Shown here: one piece after another, positions 18,452 through 25,686 of the stretch
How positions within the stretch are numbered: position 1 is the stretch's first letter
Layout: each line of letters begins with the position of its first letter
Assembly: GCF_030846775.1 (NCBI RefSeq)
Contig: NZ_CP132910.1
Coordinates: forward strand, 4,095,001 to 4,159,000
DNA: 64,000 nucleotides
Direction of reading: 5' to 3'
Origin: Geothrix sp. 21YS21S-2
GTDB taxonomy: Bacteria; Acidobacteriota; Holophagae; Holophagales; Holophagaceae
Translations under genes and position numbers: made by a program
The notes under the pieces: model-generated
What the model saw: only the letters and a program-made list of their open reading frames with translations
The model's database searches: none
Told to the model about the DNA's origin: nothing

Positions 18452-18520
18452 ATGCGCACGCGATCCATGGTCAAAGCGACCGCACCGTTGCGCGGGATTG
18501 TGGATGGAGGTCGGTCATGA
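18452..18520 (+). CDS. 22-codon leader ORF overlapping the porin start
   Basis: Short ORF starting ATG CGC ACG with GGAGG 6 nt upstream, encoding 22 residues (MRTRSMVKATAPLRGIVDGG, then RS). Its TGA stop overlaps the ATG of the porin gene in ATGA. The strong ribosome site and exact overlap suggest a translated leader peptide that couples or regulates porin translation. No homology is recognised. It is in a different frame from the porin. Confidence 0.45.
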   Translation: MRTRSMVKATAPLRGIVDGGRS

Positions 18521-19899
18521 GACACCGCACCCACATGGCCCTGCTCGCCACCCTGATGACGGCCACGGCCTTCGCGCAGGACATCAACGTCTACAGCACA
18601 ACCATGGCCCAGAGCTGGAAGCAGGACACTCCCGGCTTCGACAAGACCACCCTCATGCCGGTCACGGAATTCCTGGGCATCGACGCCAACCACCTCGGCA
18701 CGGACGCCCTGTCCCTGCACCTCTACGGCTGGGGCCGGACGGACCTGAAGGACCAGTCGGCCATCGGCGGCAAGAACGCCGGCGACCTCACCTACGGCTA
18801 CCTCCAGTACAGCTTCGACCGCGCCAACGCCGAGATCAAGGCGGGCCGGATCGTGGTGAACCAGGGGATCGGCAACGAGATGGTCGACGGCGTCTCGATG
18901 CGCACCGACCTGCGCAACGGGTTCACCTTCTCCGCCTTTGGCGGCCAGCCGGTCATCTTCAAGAACCACAGCGGGCTGCCCCAACTGGACCAGTCCTTCC
19001 AGCGCGATTTCATCGTCGGGACCCGCCTGGGCTGGCGCATGGCCAAGCTCGGCGAGATCGGCGTCTCCTACCTGCAGGACGGCACCACCGCGGCCAAGGA
19101 TCTCCCGGTCCCCAACCCCATCGACTACACCCGCCGCCAGGTGGGCGCCGACATCACCCTGGCCCCCGCGGCCTTCCTGGACTTCAGCGGCCGCACGGTC
19201 TTCGACGTGGCCAAGCACCCCGACGCGCTGCCAGGCCAGGACCGCTCCTCTATCGCCGAGCACGACTACAAGGCCACCGGCAAGATCCTGGACAACCTCT
19301 CCGTCACCGGCAACTTCGTCCAGCGCAACTTCTACGCCTACTACGCCGGCACCAACCTGCCCAGCCTCTTCAACCAGAACGAGAAGGGCAAGTTCAGCTC
19401 CAACGGCATCTCGGCCAGCTGGAGCCCCCTGGCCTTCCTGAACCTGGTCGCCGACCTGCGCACCACCAAGCGCGAGACCTACGGCAACACCACCCGGGCC
19501 GGTCTGGATGGGCGCCTCACCTTCGCGGCCCAGCACCTCGTCCTGGGCGGCGGCTACCACAAGGTGAACGCCTTCAAGGTCAAGCTCGTGGATTCCCTGA
19601 CCCCCGCCTACAGCGTCTCCCACAGCGAGATGCGCGGCTGGGCGATGTATGAGAAGGGCAACTTCTCGGCCAGCCTGGACGCCATCCGCCTCCACTACAG
19701 CGGCGCCGAGGTGAACCCGAACCTCAACCACAAGGCCATCGAATCCGAGATCGTGGGCTCCCTGGGCTACCAGGCCACGAAGAACTTCAAGATCTCCGGC
19801 GACATGAGCTTCGCGGACACCCCCCTCTACAAGAAGCAGGTGATGGGGCTCCTCCGGGCCGACTTCCGCTTCGGCTTCGCCGGTAAAGGAGGCAAGTGA
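18517..19899 (+). CDS. Outer-membrane porin-like beta-barrel of the cytochrome cluster
   Basis: 460-aa secreted protein: signal peptide MRHRTHMALLATLMTATAFA, then DINVYSTTMAQSWKQD and a long series of alternating, aromatic-ended beta strands (for example LSLHLYGWGRTDLK and FDRANAEIKAGRIVVNQGIG). This is a typical outer-membrane barrel of roughly 18-20 strands by eye. It does not carry the CXXC of MtrB. Placed first in a run of lipoprotein multihaem cytochromes, it is the likely sheath of a porin-cytochrome electron conduit (inference). The start at 18517 has GGAGG 7 nt upstream; the frame is open 64 codons further, but the signal peptide fixes the start. Confidence 0.8.
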   Translation: MRHRTHMALLATLMTATAFAQDINVYSTTMAQSWKQDTPGFDKTTLMPVTEFLGIDANHLGTDALSLHLYGWGRTDLKDQSAIGGKNAGDLTYGYLQYSFDRANAEIKAGRIVVNQGIGNEMVDGVSMRTDLRNGFTFSAFGGQPVIFKNHSGLPQLDQSFQRDFIVGTRLGWRMAKLGEIGVSYLQDGTTAAKDLPVPNPIDYTRRQVGADITLAPAAFLDFSGRTVFDVAKHPDALPGQDRSSIAEHDYKATGKILDNLSVTGNFVQRNFYAYYAGTNLPSLFNQNEKGKFSSNGISASWSPLAFLNLVADLRTTKRETYGNTTRAGLDGRLTFAAQHLVLGGGYHKVNAFKVKLVDSLTPAYSVSHSEMRGWAMYEKGNFSASLDAIRLHYSGAEVNPNLNHKAIESEIVGSLGYQATKNFKISGDMSFADTPLYKKQVMGLLRADFRFGFAGKGGK

Positions 19900-20366
19900 T
19901 GTTCAAGAAATTCGCCCTCATCGCGGCGGGCCTGGGTCTCGGCCTCCTCACCGCCTGCGCCCTGGTCTCGCCTGAAGCCAGCTTCGCGCGCACCCACCCC
20001 CAGGAGCTGAGCGCCGGCCGCCCCAGCTGCACCGAGTGCCACGGCACCGAGCGGGTCAAGAGCACCCAGAAGACCTTCGCCTCGCTGGACCACACCACCA
20101 CGTTCGTGAAGGACCACAAGGTCCAGGCCACCCAGGACGGCGCCACCTGCGCCTCCTGCCACGCCCAGTCCTTCTGCTCCGACTGCCACGGCGGCAAGAC
20201 CGCCATGCTGCCTTCGGCCAAGCTGGGCAACCGGCCCGACCGCCTGTCGCCGCACCGGACCGGCTACCTGACCATGCACCGCATCGACGGGAAGGTTGAT
20301 CCCACGGGCTGCTTCAAGTGCCATGGCCGCGCCAACAACGAAAAGTGCACCGCTTGCCACAAGTAG
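19899..20366 (+). CDS. Pentahaem c-type cytochrome lipoprotein
   Basis: 155-aa lipoprotein: MFKKFALIAAGLGLGLLTAC with lipobox LTAC (lipidated Cys20). It has five CXXCH haem motifs at residues 44-48, 84-88, 93-97, 138-142 and 150-154 (CTECH, CASCH, CSDCH, CFKCH, CTACH). The closely packed CASCH/CSDCH pair resembles cytochrome c7/DmsE-like domains. The start is the ATG at 19899 (AGGAGG 6 nt upstream) rather than GTG 19896; it overlaps the porin stop by 1 nt. The lipid anchor suggests membrane attachment on the periplasmic side, feeding the porin-decaheme conduit. Confidence 0.88.
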   Translation: MFKKFALIAAGLGLGLLTACALVSPEASFARTHPQELSAGRPSCTECHGTERVKSTQKTFASLDHTTTFVKDHKVQATQDGATCASCHAQSFCSDCHGGKTAMLPSAKLGNRPDRLSPHRTGYLTMHRIDGKVDPTGCFKCHGRANNEKCTACHK

Positions 20367-20376
20367 GGGTCTGATC

Positions 20377-21024
20377 ATGAACAAAACCTTGATTGCAAAG
20401 ACCTTCTTCGCGGCAATGGCGGCGTTGGCCATCATCGGTTGCTCCAGCACCGCGGCCGACAAGGCGGCGACGCTGAACCCGGCCACGGGCGCCCATCCGG
20501 CCACCTGGCAGGCCACCCACTGGTCCGAGTACCTGAAGAATCCCGACGGCTGCAAGCCCTGCCATGGCTCCACCACGGACACCGCGGCGGCGGGCGGCAC
20601 CTCCGGCGTCAGCTGCTTCGGCTGCCACCACCCCAACGGCCCCCACCACCCCGCCGGTTGGGCGAACCCCTCCCAGCATGGGCGGCTGGGCGCCCAGGGC
20701 GCCCCCAACGGCGCCACGTTCCTCCAAGGCAAGGGTTTCGCCTCCTGCACGCCTTGCCACGGCTCGGACTACACCAACCCTGTCGGCATCGCTCCTTCCT
20801 GCAAGGCCTGCCACACCAAGGCGCCGCACCCCAGCAAACCCTGGCAGAGCGGCCTTTCCCCGTTGAACCCCAACCACGACAAGACCGATTACGCGAACGC
20901 TTCCGAGTGCGTGAAATGCCATGCCCTCGGCGCCAATTCCGATATCACGCCCCAGCCCCCCGCACCCGCGGGAACGACACCCGGCTGCTTCAACGGAACG
21001 CTCTGCCACACCACCAAGTTTTAA
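20377..21024 (+). CDS. Multihaem c-type cytochrome lipoprotein (5 or 6 haems)
   Basis: 215-aa lipoprotein: MNKTLIAKTFFAAMAALAII then GCSS, lipidated Cys22. There are five CXXCH motifs at residues 59-63, 80-84, 124-128, 142-146 and 178-182. Near the C-terminus Cys204 and Cys210-His211 form a CX5CH arrangement (CFNGTLCH) that could bind a sixth haem through a non-standard motif. Many extra His residues (HHPNGPHH) can serve as distal ligands. It starts 10 bp after the pentahaem gene, so it is probably in one operon with the porin. I cannot place it in a named family beyond multihaem cytochrome c. Confidence 0.85.
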   Translation: MNKTLIAKTFFAAMAALAIIGCSSTAADKAATLNPATGAHPATWQATHWSEYLKNPDGCKPCHGSTTDTAAAGGTSGVSCFGCHHPNGPHHPAGWANPSQHGRLGAQGAPNGATFLQGKGFASCTPCHGSDYTNPVGIAPSCKACHTKAPHPSKPWQSGLSPLNPNHDKTDYANASECVKCHALGANSDITPQPPAPAGTTPGCFNGTLCHTTKF

Positions 21025-21176
21025 TTTCCAGACGGCCACCGCGTCGTTTTGAAGCAACTGATCTGTCAGACCACCACGGGAGGTGCACGACTTGACACAT
21101 AAGCGACGTCAACCCAATCACTGCCAGCTCCAAGCAAGGCAATTTTGCGCAAATGCTAATAAAAGGAGGAAGTAGC

Positions 21177-24038
21177 ATGGAAATGAAACCTCTCAAGAGG
21201 TTGGGCACCCTGGTCGCCACTGCGGCCATCGCCCTCGCCCTCATCGGCTGTCGCGGTGCGACAGGCGCCGCCGGCGCCAATGGCGTCAACGGCACCAATG
21301 GTACCAATGGCACCAACGGCACCAACGGCTCCAACGGCACCAACGGCACCAACGGCACCGGCCCCCAGGTGCTCGCCGCCAACCTGACGCCCACTGAATG
21401 GAGCGACCTGGCCCTCCAGGGCACCATCACCAGCGCGACCGTCACCAACGGCAAGCCCGTCATCAACTTCAAGGTGACCGACAACAACGGTACCCCCGTG
21501 GTCGGCCTCGGCTTCACCTCGAAGGCCTCCAACGCCCTCGCCGCCAGCTATCCCAACTTCGGCTTCACCATCGCCAAGCTGGTGCCCGGCACCGCCGGTT
21601 CCCCCAGCACCTGGGTGAACTACGTCGTCACCACGATGCCCACCACCACCACGGCTTCGGTCCCCGGCAAGCCTTCCACCGACAGCACCGGCACCCTCGT
21701 TGACAACGGCGACGGCAGCTACGTCTACACCTTCTACCGCGACATCACCAAGGTGCAGGCTGCCTTGGACGCCTTCACGTACACCGGCAACAACAGCCGC
21801 GCCGACCTGGGCGACGTGACCTACGTTCCCACCCTGACCCACCGCGTCGCCATCCAGATCGGCGGCAACGCCCGCGGCACCAGCACCAACACTGCCACCG
21901 GCGCCGACAGCGGCGTTCCCGCAGCCCCCATCCAGGTGGCCGCGAACATGGTCTACGATTTCGTTCCCGCCACCGGCAAGGCCGTCGCGGCCACGGACCA
22001 GCAGCGGGTCGTGACCTCCCTCGGCGCCTGCAACGCCTGCCACACGCGCCTCACGGTGCACGGCGGCAACCGCTTCGACCCCAACTACTGCGTGATCTGC
22101 CACACGGACCAGCGCAAGTACACCTACGGTGAGGCCTCCTCCACCGTCGTGGGCGCCACCGCGACCGTGCCCGCCCACCTCAAGTTCACGGGCAGCACGA
22201 TGAAGGTCCGCGGCCTGGCCGTGGCCGACTTCCCCGCGTTCATCCACCGCCTCCACATGGGCGAGGGCCTTGTCAACGAGGGCTACAACTACGCCAACGT
22301 CCTGTTCAACGAAGTCGCCTACCCCATGGACCAGCGGAACTGTGTGCAGTGCCACAGCGCGTCCACCGGCGCGGCCCAGGGCGACAACTGGAACACCGTC
22401 CCCAGCCGCACCGCCTGCGGTGCCTGCCATGACGCAGTCGACTTCGCCAACGGCGTCAACCACGCCGCGCTCGCCGACGATTCCCAGTGCACCCAGTGCC
22501 ACACCCCCGGCGGCATCAAGATCAACCACACCCCGGTCGTGGCTCCCAACGCCAACAACGGCTATCTGGCCGCGCCTCCTGCCGGCTCCCAGCCCCGCAA
22601 CAACAACACCAACGCCTCCTACGTGGCCGGCTACACGGGCAACCTGCCCGCCGGTGCCTGGATCCCCACCTGGGAACTCAAGTCGGTCATTCTGAACGCC
22701 TCCAGCCAGCCCGTGTTCACCTTCCGCTTCATGGTTGACAAGCAGGACGGCCAGGGTCCCAAGGCCCAGACCATGCAGACCTATGCGGCGGGCACTGTCA
22801 CGGAGATGTTCGCCGGCTATGTCGGCAGCCCCAGCATCTACCTGGCCTTCGCGATTCCCCAGGACGGCATCGCCGCCCCCGCGGACTACAACGCCACGAT
22901 CAGCACCTACCTGAAGCGCGTCTGGAACGGCACCGCCACCGGCAACGCCGTGGGCACCCTCTCCGCCACCCCCGACGCCAACGGCTACTACACCCTCGCC
23001 CTCACCGCCGTGAAGGTGCCTTCCACCGCCACCATGCTCACCGGCGGCATCGGCTACACCTACGGCGTGAACACGGACGTCACCAAGGACACCCAGCCCC
23101 TGACCCAGACCGGCGTCACCGGCTACGCCTACGACCCCGCCACCAAGCAGGGCGGCCTGTCCGTTCCCGCTCCCAACGTCTGGAAGATGGTAGCCAACGG
23201 CTTTGATGCCTCCGGCAAGGCCGTGACTCCGGCCAACGGCAGCACCGCGCTCTACGCCCAGGTTCAGCCCCGGCGCGCGATCGTCACCAATGCCAAGTGC
23301 AACGCCTGTCACGCCGCCCTCGGCATCTTCACCGAGAAGGTGTACCACGCCGGCCAGCGCAACGACGCCCCGACCTGCAACTTCTGCCACAACCCGAACA
23401 AGGCCAATGCCTATGGTTGGGCCGTGAACATCAAGGACGCCGTCCACGCCATCCACGCCGCCGACAAGCGGGTCAACAAGTTCAGCTGGGAAGTCGCCTC
23501 CGGTGACTACTACTGGAACGTGACGTACCCCGCGATCCTGAACAACTGCGAAGCCTGCCACGTGCCCGGCTCGTACGACTTCGGTGGCACGGCCAACGCC
23601 GCCGCCATTCCCAACCTGCTCTACTCCACGGCCATGGCGGGCACCACCACCGCGCCCACCACGCCTGCCGCCACCCCCACCATCGTTGTGGGTGACGGCG
23701 TCGCCGAGCCCCTGTCCTGGCAGAACAACTACTGGGCCCCCGGCATCGCCCCCAACACCAGCTACGGCCTCGTGTTCCAGACGAGCTTCAAGGCCGCCGA
23801 CGTTACCGCGAATACCTACTCCACCCCCGCGGATACTCGGAACCTGGTCCACTCGCCCGTCACTGCCGCCTGCTGGTCCTGCCACGACAGCAAGACCGCC
23901 ACGGCTCACATGCTCGCCAACGGTGGTTCGATCAACGAACCCCGCGCGACGGCCATGCTGAAGTCCGAGCAGTGCACGCTCTGCCACGCCGCCGGCAAGA
24001 CCGCCGACGTCAGGGCCGTCCACATGAACTTCAAGTAA
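21177..24038 (+). CDS. OmcA/MtrC-family decaheme c-type cytochrome, lipoprotein
   Basis: 953-aa outer-membrane decaheme cytochrome. A lipoprotein signal ends LALIGC (Cys25) and is followed by a collagen-like GXX stalk (residues 27-61). Ten CXXCH motifs occur in two groups of five, as in MtrC/OmcA: CNACH, CVICH, CVQCH, CGACH, CTQCH, then CNACH, CNFCH, CEACH, CWSCH, CTLCH. Beta-rich domains sit before and between the two haem groups. FIHRLHMGEGL and AVHAIHAADKR are family motifs. It is the likely cell-surface terminal reductase for metals, humics or electrodes. GGAGGA lies 6 nt upstream of the ATG. It is 152 bp after the previous cytochrome, so it may have its own promoter. Confidence 0.93.
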   Translation: MEMKPLKRLGTLVATAAIALALIGCRGATGAAGANGVNGTNGTNGTNGTNGSNGTNGTNGTGPQVLAANLTPTEWSDLALQGTITSATVTNGKPVINFKVTDNNGTPVVGLGFTSKASNALAASYPNFGFTIAKLVPGTAGSPSTWVNYVVTTMPTTTTASVPGKPSTDSTGTLVDNGDGSYVYTFYRDITKVQAALDAFTYTGNNSRADLGDVTYVPTLTHRVAIQIGGNARGTSTNTATGADSGVPAAPIQVAANMVYDFVPATGKAVAATDQQRVVTSLGACNACHTRLTVHGGNRFDPNYCVICHTDQRKYTYGEASSTVVGATATVPAHLKFTGSTMKVRGLAVADFPAFIHRLHMGEGLVNEGYNYANVLFNEVAYPMDQRNCVQCHSASTGAAQGDNWNTVPSRTACGACHDAVDFANGVNHAALADDSQCTQCHTPGGIKINHTPVVAPNANNGYLAAPPAGSQPRNNNTNASYVAGYTGNLPAGAWIPTWELKSVILNASSQPVFTFRFMVDKQDGQGPKAQTMQTYAAGTVTEMFAGYVGSPSIYLAFAIPQDGIAAPADYNATISTYLKRVWNGTATGNAVGTLSATPDANGYYTLALTAVKVPSTATMLTGGIGYTYGVNTDVTKDTQPLTQTGVTGYAYDPATKQGGLSVPAPNVWKMVANGFDASGKAVTPANGSTALYAQVQPRRAIVTNAKCNACHAALGIFTEKVYHAGQRNDAPTCNFCHNPNKANAYGWAVNIKDAVHAIHAADKRVNKFSWEVASGDYYWNVTYPAILNNCEACHVPGSYDFGGTANAAAIPNLLYSTAMAGTTTAPTTPAATPTIVVGDGVAEPLSWQNNYWAPGIAPNTSYGLVFQTSFKAADVTANTYSTPADTRNLVHSPVTAACWSCHDSKTATAHMLANGGSINEPRATAMLKSEQCTLCHAAGKTADVRAVHMNFK
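21255..21359 (+). repeat. 9-bp tandem repeats encoding a collagen-like stalk
   Basis: About twelve consecutive 9-bp units (consensus GGCACCAAC) encode Gly-X-X triplets, mostly Gly-Thr-Asn, just after the lipid anchor of the decaheme cytochrome. Unit number could vary by slippage. Confidence 0.8.
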
Positions 24039-24147: not shown

Positions 24148-24513
24148 ATGAACCGCAGCACCCTGAAGACCGCCCTCGCCGCCCTTCTGATCCTCGGGTC
24201 CGGCACCGCCGTGCTGGCCCAGGACGATGACCAGCCGCGGGCGCCCAAACCCCGGGCCGCCAAACCCCATCCCAGGAAGAAGCCCGCGAAGCCCATCGGC
24301 AAGCAGGTGGACATCAACAGCGCCAGCAAGGACGAACTGCAGAAGGTCCCCGGCATCACGCCCGACCTGGCCTCCAGGATCATCGCCGGAAGGCCCTACG
24401 TCACGAAGTCCCATCTGGTCGAGAAGAATGCCGTGCCCATGGGGGTCTACCTCGCCATCAAGGACCGGGTCTTTGTGAAGCAGAACATGAAGGTTGCGCC
24501 CAAGGGCAAGTAG
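24148..24513 (+). CDS. Secreted helix-hairpin-helix protein (ComEA-like domain)
   Basis: 121-aa exported protein: signal peptide MNRSTLKTALAALLILGSGT with cleavage near VLAQ, a Pro/Lys/Arg-rich linker (residues about 27-52), then one HhH module (VDINSASKDELQKVPGITPD, LASRIIAGRPY). The domain is that of ComEA-type DNA-binding proteins, but the protein is short and basic, so DNA binding in the periplasm is plausible, not shown. GGAGG lies 6 nt upstream of the ATG. It is 109 bp downstream of the decaheme gene with a hairpin in between, so it may be a separate unit. Confidence 0.8.
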   Translation: MNRSTLKTALAALLILGSGTAVLAQDDDQPRAPKPRAAKPHPRKKPAKPIGKQVDINSASKDELQKVPGITPDLASRIIAGRPYVTKSHLVEKNAVPMGVYLAIKDRVFVKQNMKVAPKGK

Positions 24514-24549: not shown

Positions 24550-24987
24550 CTACTTCTTCGCGGCCGTGAGTTCCCGGTGCTGCTGCATGTCGAGGATCTG
24601 CAGGTCGCGGATGGTCACGTTGGTCATCGACGCGTCCATGTGGGCCTTGACCTCGTTCCAGGCCTTGTGGAGGGGGCAGGGGTTGTCCACGTTGTCGCAG
24701 TGGGCGAAGCCCATGACGCAGCCCGACATGGTCTCGATGCCCTCCAGGGCAGCCACCACCTCGCCCACGGTGATGTGGTGGGCGGGACGGGCCAGCCGGA
24801 ACCCGCCGCGGGGACCCCGCACGGAGTGCAGGATGCCCTCCTGGGCCAGGGACTGGAGGATCTTGGCCAGGTAGGGGCCGGGAAGGTCCAGGAGCGAGGC
24901 CAGGTCCTTGGCCAAGCTGTACGTTCCATCCTCGGGCATCGCTGCCAGAGCCCTGAGTGCATAGCCGGTTGCCGTCGAGAAGAGCAT
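24550..24987 (-). CDS. Rrf2 family transcriptional regulator (probable Fe-S sensor)
   Basis: 145-aa winged-helix regulator: MLFSTATGYALRALAAM, the recognition region SLLDLPGPYLAKILQSLAQE, and the wing SVRGPRGGFRLARP. Cys90, Cys97 and Cys104 (CX6CX6C) sit where IscR/NsrR-type members hold an Fe-S cluster, though the spacing differs from classic NsrR and IscR. It could sense NO, redox or iron state. The start at 24987 gives the normal N-terminus; the open frame to 25035 adds unrelated residues. It follows a Crp/Fnr gene on the same strand (72 bp apart) and converges on the cytochrome cluster. Confidence 0.88.
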   Translation of the reverse strand: MLFSTATGYALRALAAMPEDGTYSLAKDLASLLDLPGPYLAKILQSLAQEGILHSVRGPRGGFRLARPAHHITVGEVVAALEGIETMSGCVMGFAHCDNVDNPCPLHKAWNEVKAHMDASMTNVTIRDLQILDMQQHRELTAAKK

Positions 24988-25059
24988 GGCGAATCCCTGT
25001 TTAATTAAGGATAGGCTTGTCTTCTTAAAAAACAAATGAATTAATGAACGTTACACATC

Positions 25060-25686
25060 TTATTTCCTGGACAGGGTCGTTCCCTTCACCTGGAGAACAC
25101 CCTGGTCCTGCAAGGTTCTGAGGCTCCTGGACAGGGTTTCCGGGGTCATGCCCAATTGAGCCGCCAGGGTCTTTTTTGTGACCGGAAGCACCATGGAGCC
25201 GCCGGCGGGCACGTGCTCCCGGATCCACGTGCGCAGGCGGTCCGAGCTGTCCGAGCCCGTGAGCTGCTCCACCTTGCGGGTGAGCTTGCGCAGCCAGACG
25301 GACTGGGCGTGGATGATGGCCAGGGCCAGGTCCGGGTCCTCGCGCATGGCCGCCATGAACGGAGCCTTGGGAAAGTGGTAGACCCGGGAGGGCTTGACGG
25401 CCGTGGCGGTGGCGGGGAAGACCTCGCCTCCGAACATCGCGGCCTCGGCGAAGCTGTTCACCGGGGTCACCACCGCCAGGGTGGGGTGGGAGCCGGGGGT
25501 GTCGCCGCTGCGGGTGAGCTGGATGGCGCCCTCCACCAGGACGTAGAAGCCCGTGCAGGGTTCGTTCTCCAGGAAGAGCATGGTCTCGGGGTCCAGGATG
25601 CGGGAGGTGGCGAGGCGTCCTACCCGTTCGCGCTGGGCGGGTTGCAGAGTGCGGAAGAGGGGGGCGGCGGACCAGGGCGGGATCAT
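25060..25686 (-). CDS. Crp/Fnr family transcriptional regulator
   Basis: 208-aa regulator with an N-terminal cyclic-nucleotide-binding-like jelly roll (LFRTLQPAQRERVGRLATS to about residue 120), a dimerisation helix and a C-terminal HTH (VTKKTLAAQLGMTPETLSRS). It lacks the N-terminal Cys cluster of FNR and the Arg-Ser phosphate pocket of CRP is not evident, so the signal may be haem/NO (Dnr-like) or other. It sits between lnt (22 bp upstream) and rrf2. Control of the nearby cytochromes is an attractive guess only. Confidence 0.88.
   Translation of the reverse strand: MIPPWSAAPLFRTLQPAQRERVGRLATSRILDPETMLFLENEPCTGFYVLVEGAIQLTRSGDTPGSHPTLAVVTPVNSFAEAAMFGGEVFPATATAVKPSRVYHFPKAPFMAAMREDPDLALAIIHAQSVWLRKLTRKVEQLTGSDSSDRLRTWIREHVPAGGSMVLPVTKKTLAAQLGMTPETLSRSLRTLQDQGVLQVKGTTLSRK

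What the first reader, a model, noticed from the sequence alone, without database searches (positions are those of the whole stretch)
18452..24038. Porin plus three lipoprotein multihaem cytochromes: a candidate outer-membrane electron conduit
A barrel gene, a pentahaem lipoprotein, a 5-6-haem lipoprotein and an OmcA/MtrC decaheme lipoprotein lie in a row. Known conduits are MtrCAB (decaheme periplasmic MtrA, large MtrB barrel) and Geobacter Pcc (octa- and dodecahaem). Here no MtrA-like decaheme is present, the barrel is small (460 aa) and both small cytochromes carry lipoboxes. Seen: genes, haem motifs, lipoboxes. Inferred: that they form one complex of new composition.
Basis: partly seen in the sequence, partly recalled or inferred. 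Interest (0 to 1): 0.65.

Follow-up and report, generated by a model that had tools for sequence, protein, structure and literature searches.

The report
Acidobacterial outer-membrane electron-export gene cluster
Four neighbouring genes very probably encode a membrane pore plus three haem-rich lipoproteins that pass respiratory electrons out of the cell; the kind is known from Geobacter, but here it carries a Shewanella-type surface cytochrome and is conserved through a whole family of soil and sediment bacteria.

Summary
In a row on the + strand lie a 460-aa predicted outer-membrane barrel, a pentahaem lipoprotein, a hexahaem lipoprotein (five CXXCH plus a CX5CH) and an OmcA/MtrC-family decahaem lipoprotein. 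It is no chance row: the barrel is in 59 of 77 family genomes. In 40 distinct fetched loci the pentahaem and hexahaem genes follow the barrel wherever the contig allows (39 of 39), and OmcA/MtrC follows in 32 of 36. MtrB and true MtrA are absent from the complete genome.

'New composition' is only partly right. Barrel + pentahaem + hexahaem lipoprotein is the published make-up of Geobacter ExtBCD, and ExtB/E- or ExtEFG-type clusters are reported from Holophaga. What I add: an OmcA/MtrC cap on such a core; the family-wide conservation; and gene fusions suggesting that the hexahaem domain is an adapter onto which different outer cytochromes are plugged. Homology to ExtB/C/D could not be tested by sequence, and no usable structure was obtained. 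New variant of a known kind.

The parts
18517..19899 (+). Predicted outer-membrane beta-barrel (460 aa), ExtB/ExtE-like by context
   Evidence: Beta periodicity; in 59 of 77 family genomes; no Pfam/NCBIfam/PDB match
19899..20366 (+). Pentahaem lipoprotein c5 (155 aa), ExtC/ExtF-like by composition; proposed barrel plug or inner relay
   Evidence: 5 CXXCH, lipid Cys invariant in 29 aligned sequences; ATGA overlap with the barrel gene; most conserved of the four
20377..21024 (+). Hexahaem lipoprotein c6 (215 aa); proposed adapter to the outer cytochrome
   Evidence: 5 CXXCH plus invariant CX5CH; same domain N-terminal in 19-29-haem polyhaem lipoproteins
20986..21009 (+). CX5CH putative sixth haem site of c6 (CFNGTLCH)
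   Evidence: 40 of 40 sequences, 39 distinct loci plus the window
21177..24038 (+). OmcA/MtrC-family decahaem lipoprotein (953 aa)
   Evidence: TIGR03507 454.8 bits, cut-off 209.3; PF22113; PDB matches to MtrF, MtrC, OmcA
21246..21362 (+). Collagen-like Gly-X-Y stretch (13 triplets) directly at the lipid Cys of the decahaem protein
   Evidence: Present in 35 of 35 homologues, 7-16 triplets; Pfam Collagen E 1.1e-4, under cut-off
24148..24513 (+). Secreted helix-hairpin-helix (ComEA-like) protein, linked downstream; role in the conduit unknown
   Evidence: PF12836 E 5e-10; downstream in 25 of 27 loci with a complete decahaem gene

Best explanation
The four genes encode one porin-cytochrome conduit that carries respiratory electrons across the outer membrane to extracellular acceptors (Fe(III), Mn(IV), humics or electrodes; which one is not known). 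The 460-aa protein is the barrel. The pentahaem lipoprotein sits in or at the inner mouth of the barrel and takes electrons from periplasmic cytochromes. The hexahaem lipoprotein caps the outer mouth as an adapter. The OmcA/MtrC decahaem protein, tethered by its lipid and a Gly-X-Y stalk, is the exchangeable outermost reductase. It works like Geobacter ExtBCD with an Mtr-type cap. Shown: genes, haem motifs, lipoboxes, conservation, fusions, absence of MtrAB. Inferred: complex, positions in the membrane, direction, acceptor.
For: Gene order barrel-c5-c6 in 39 of 39 testable distinct loci and OmcA/MtrC directly after in 32 of 36. In two of the other four (L035, L036) the c6 domain is fused to a 25-haem polyhaem protein; in the last two (L040, L044) c6 is doubled and a decahaem gene lies upstream. 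Both fit c6 as the dock for the outer cytochrome. Conservation falls outwards: median pairwise identity 62.6 (c5), 55.1 (barrel), 55.0 (c6), 52.5 (OmcA); c5 exceeds the barrel in 97% of 378 non-independent pairs. In L004 the barrel is 91% and c5 93% identical but OmcA 45%: the outer part is replaced. No MtrB (PF11854) and no MtrA over cut-off in the complete genome. The genome also holds a 9-haem/cytochrome b561 protein (CbcL-like), a NapC-type cytochrome (ImcH-like), and small tetra- and hexahaem proteins without a lipobox. In Geobacter, deleting extB, extC or extD nearly abolishes current while extA loss is milder (PMC8357294).
Against: No structure: AlphaFold2 failed, so barrel and plug are not shown. 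Beta periodicity of the window's own porin alone is weak (z 1.6). No adjacent periplasmic cytochrome. The gap of 152 bp before the OmcA start leaves separate transcription possible, although no promoter- or terminator-like site was found there on the + strand. No expression or biochemical data for this organism.
Confidence: 0.78

Rival explanations
1. The barrel, c5 and c6 form a conduit, but the OmcA/MtrC protein is an independent surface cytochrome that is only co-located.
For: A longer gap before OmcA; L004 has replaced OmcA while keeping the rest; several genomes carry 2-3 OmcA copies in tandem.
Against: OmcA directly follows in 32 of 36 testable loci; where it does not, a fused polyhaem protein or a decahaem gene just upstream takes its place.
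Confidence: 0.2
2. The conduit runs inward: an uptake system for electrons from Fe(II) or other cells.
For: Sequence cannot tell direction; iron oxidation by Holophaga/Geothrix near cable bacteria is suggested in PMC11748539 (passage).
Against: CbcL-like and ImcH-like quinol oxidases in the genome; relatives such as Geothrix fermentans are known Fe(III) reducers (PMC6295460 passage).
Confidence: 0.1
3. The 460-aa protein is an ordinary porin or solute channel and the cytochromes are separate surface proteins.
For: No family match for the barrel; no structure.
Against: No testable locus has the barrel without c5 and c6; c5 overlaps it by ATGA in the window.
Confidence: 0.05

Closest known systems
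Geobacter sulfurreducens ExtABCD (and ExtEFG)
   Same: Barrel followed by a pentahaem lipoprotein and, in ExtBCD, a second lipoprotein cytochrome given as hexahaem in one paper; the outer lipoprotein is often replaced (PMC6148476, PMC8357294).
   Different: No ExtA/ExtG-like dodecahaem in the cluster; an added OmcA/MtrC decahaem gene; homology by sequence not tested here.
ExtB/E-family porin-cytochrome cluster of Holophaga S7, and extEFG homologues expressed by a Holophaga genome bin
   Same: Related bacteria; Ext-type porin; an mtrF-type cytochrome expressed by the same genome bin (PMC7399161 sections 11 and 18; PMC11748539 passages).
   Different: The texts read do not describe gene order, the CX5CH site or the fusions; I did not have their sequences or figures.
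Shewanella MtrCAB/OmcA
   Same: The outer decahaem protein belongs to the same family (TIGR03507).
   Different: No MtrB match and no MtrA over cut-off anywhere in the genome.
Geobacter OmbB-OmaB-OmcB (Pcc)
   Same: Works alike: barrel plus cytochromes on both sides.
   Different: No octahaem periplasmic or dodecahaem outer cytochrome here.

Membership tests
Ext-type conduit (ExtABCD/ExtEFG) | Integral outer-membrane barrel (18-21 strands) | tested here: inconclusive
   Beta periodicity supports a barrel; strand number not determined; AlphaFold2 failed
Ext-type conduit (ExtABCD/ExtEFG) | Pentahaem lipoprotein next to the barrel | tested here: met
   c5, 5 CXXCH, lipid Cys; 39 of 39 testable distinct loci
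Ext-type conduit (ExtABCD/ExtEFG) | Second lipoprotein cytochrome (ExtD; hexahaem in PMC8357294, 12 sites in PMC6148476) | tested here: met
   c6, six sites counting CX5CH; the haem number of ExtD itself is given differently by the two papers
Ext-type conduit (ExtABCD/ExtEFG) | Periplasmic dodecahaem cytochrome (ExtA/ExtG) in the cluster | tested here: not met
   None in the window; none recognised in a one-family genome inventory, which is incomplete. extBCD without nearby extA is reported in print
Ext-type conduit (ExtABCD/ExtEFG) | Sequence homology to GSU2644/2643/2642 | not testable with these tools
MtrCAB | MtrB barrel (PF11854) | tested here: not met
   0 matches in G000; 3 of 77 family genomes
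MtrCAB | MtrA/DmsE periplasmic decahaem (TIGR03508) | tested here: not met
   Best 41.8 bits in G000 against cut-off 192.2; over cut-off in 4 of 77 genomes
MtrCAB | MtrC/OmcA surface decahaem (TIGR03507) | tested here: met
   454.8 bits, cut-off 209.3
OmbB-OmaB-OmcB | Octahaem periplasmic plus dodecahaem outer cytochrome | tested here: not met
   Haem-site counts in the cluster are 5, 6 and 10

The most novel reading that the evidence does not exclude
A modular hybrid conduit: an Ext-type core whose hexahaem adapter accepts interchangeable outer modules (OmcA/MtrC decahaem, fused 25-haem polyhaem, doubled hexahaem). The decahaem protein stands on a collagen-like triple-helical stalk, so that three decahaem heads could form one antenna over the pore, and an exported HhH (DNA-binding type) protein encoded next door could tie the conduit to extracellular DNA in the biofilm.
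Probability: 0.15. Interest if true: 0.65.

Novelty: new variant of a known kind. Interest (0 to 1): 0.42.

Why it matters
If right, most Holophagaceae cross the outer membrane without MtrAB, using an Ext-type core joined to an Mtr-type surface cytochrome. Two systems usually treated as separate inventions would then be parts of one plug-and-socket scheme. The fusions name the socket (the hexahaem protein), which makes the little-understood order of cytochromes in Ext conduits testable.

Tried and rejected
Rejected: chance row of cytochromes (conservation); MtrCAB variant. The only two hits of the pentahaem profile outside the family (G115, G307; 35 of 396 phylum genomes positive in all) have no barrel matching our profile on the fetched stretches; at G115 the neighbours are giant cytochrome/beta-propeller proteins. 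I do not count them as conduits.

Led nowhere: plasmid tblastn with c5, barrel and c6 (no match); viral-contig scans (no relatives); PDB searches for the barrel (none) and c5/c6 (only weak general multihaem matches); AlphaFold2 of the barrel. Strand counting from dyad peaks: 17 peaks against 11.9 +/- 2.5 in shuffles, not firm enough to state a strand number.

Selections: 40 of the 65 non-window places were fetched widely; L045 repeats L004 and was dropped from counts. Alignments used 30 of 42 barrels, 29 of 41 c5 and 25 of 41 c6 sequences, near-duplicates and fused or doubled forms left out. One search used 28 complete clusters, window included. The strict lipobox pattern matched 38 of 40 c5, 39 of 40 c6 and 33 of 35 OmcA sequences; in the five misses the Cys is present but the residues before it, or the start chosen by my script, did not fit.

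Full report
What is there. The window is part of a complete 5,248,135-base genome of the Holophagaceae: its closest named relative is the UBA692 bin, 91% identical in the barrel, and the genus was not established. The decahaem gene most likely starts at 21177, and the middle cytochrome has a sixth possible site, CX5CH, found in 40 of 40 sequences (39 distinct loci plus the window). No other open frame with two or more CXXCH motifs was found in the window.

Conservation. The barrel was found in 59 of 77 genomes of the family, 41 of 48 among the good ones. I fetched 40 loci around it plus L004 (41; 40 distinct). The pentahaem gene follows in 39 of 39 distinct loci where the contig goes on (L038 ends too early), and a hexahaem domain follows it in the same 39. 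Of 36 loci with room after that (L037, L038, L039 and L047 end too early), 32 have an OmcA/MtrC gene directly downstream, some cut by a contig end; two (L035, L036) have the hexahaem domain fused into a 25-haem protein; and two (L040, L044) have a doubled hexahaem gene with a decahaem gene upstream of the barrel. Some genomes carry two or three OmcA genes in tandem (L042, L063-L065, L067, L068). In a phylum sample of 396 genomes the pentahaem profile hit 35, of which 33 are in the same family and two are unrelated loci.

Is the 460-aa protein a barrel? It has no family or PDB match. Family-averaged hydropathy shows beta and no alpha periodicity. Singly, 41 family members have median z 3.0 (1.6 to 4.6) against 3.3 for an MtrB from the same family and -1.7 to 1.2 for nine other window proteins; the window's own sequence is at the low end (1.6). 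AlphaFold2 was limited to two near-identical sequences and failed (pLDDT 25.8), so the barrel is well supported but not shown.

How it probably works. Conservation falls from the pentahaem protein outwards (62.6, 55.1, 55.0 and 52.5% median identity for c5, barrel, c6 and OmcA), and the outermost protein is the one that gets replaced (L004: 91, 93, 80 and 45% for barrel, c5, c6 and OmcA). Published work on Geobacter conduits reports that outer parts are replaced more often than inner ones (PMC6148476 section 19). The hexahaem domain is also the N-terminal part of two polyhaem lipoproteins elsewhere in the same genome (L144 with 29 CXXCH, L150 with 19) and of the 25-haem proteins in second barrel loci. 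I therefore place the pentahaem protein innermost, the hexahaem protein at the outer mouth, and OmcA/MtrC or a polyhaem protein outside; the positions are inferred. Electron supply is plausible: the genome has a 584-aa protein with nine CXXCH and a cytochrome b561 domain (CbcL-like; that CbcL has this make-up is recalled), a NapC-type 499-aa cytochrome (ImcH-like; ImcH in Geothrix fermentans is reported in PMC6295460), and small tetra- and hexahaem proteins without a lipobox. In Geobacter, extB, extC and extD are each needed for electrode growth while extA is not strictly needed (PMC8357294 passages), which fits a conduit lacking an adjacent ExtA.

Membership. It is not MtrCAB: MtrB is absent and MtrA below cut-off genome-wide, though the cap belongs to that family. 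By composition it matches ExtBCD, but the dodecahaem partner is not in the cluster and sequence homology could not be tested; I therefore say it works like ExtBCD and may well be a member. Relatives in print: an ExtB/E-family cluster in Holophaga S7 (PMC7399161, passages and sections 11 and 18 read), extEFG homologues and mtrF expressed by a Holophaga bin (PMC11748539, passages), and Geothrix clusters, some with no homology to known ones (PMC6344600, passages). In searches (open-licence PubMed Central only; listings, and passages of the papers named here) I saw no description of the OmcA/MtrC cap, the CX5CH adapter or the fusions in this family. Figures and supplements were not available, so they may be drawn there.

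Verdict. A real and probably functional conduit, conserved across a family: a new variant of a known kind, of moderate interest.

Noticed in passing
window 24148-24513; 25 loci: A secreted helix-hairpin-helix (ComEA-like) protein gene lies downstream of the decahaem gene(s) in 25 of 27 loci with a complete decahaem gene (missing in L071, L072). Why a DNA-binding-type protein is tied to an electron conduit is unexplained.
   Followed up: partly
window 21246-21362; 35 homologues: A Gly-X-Y collagen-like stretch of 7-16 triplets starts at or next to the lipid Cys of every decahaem homologue, with changing residues (GTN, GPT, GAT) but kept periodicity. It could be a trimeric stalk.
   Followed up: partly
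L144:3839-7861 and L150:4392-7157 (own genome): Two giant polyhaem lipoproteins (29 and 19 CXXCH, more with longer motifs) that begin with the same hexahaem domain as the window's c6; no barrel matching our profile nearby.
   Followed up: partly
L120:6935-10514, L121:4244-7682: Two-gene MtrA-MtrB sets with no further multihaem gene beside them on the same strand, in two family genomes (G054, G056) that also carry the Ext-like barrel.
   Followed up: no
window 24550-25686 (- strand): An Rrf2-type and a Crp/FtrB-like regulator sit convergent to the cluster and keep that place in L055 and L056 and, further off, L058; candidate regulators of the cluster.
   Followed up: no
L125:3639-5936 (own genome, about 1.026 Mb): An octahaem protein of 766 aa with weak MtrA-like similarity followed by immunoglobulin-like domains, an unusual domain mix.
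   Followed up: no
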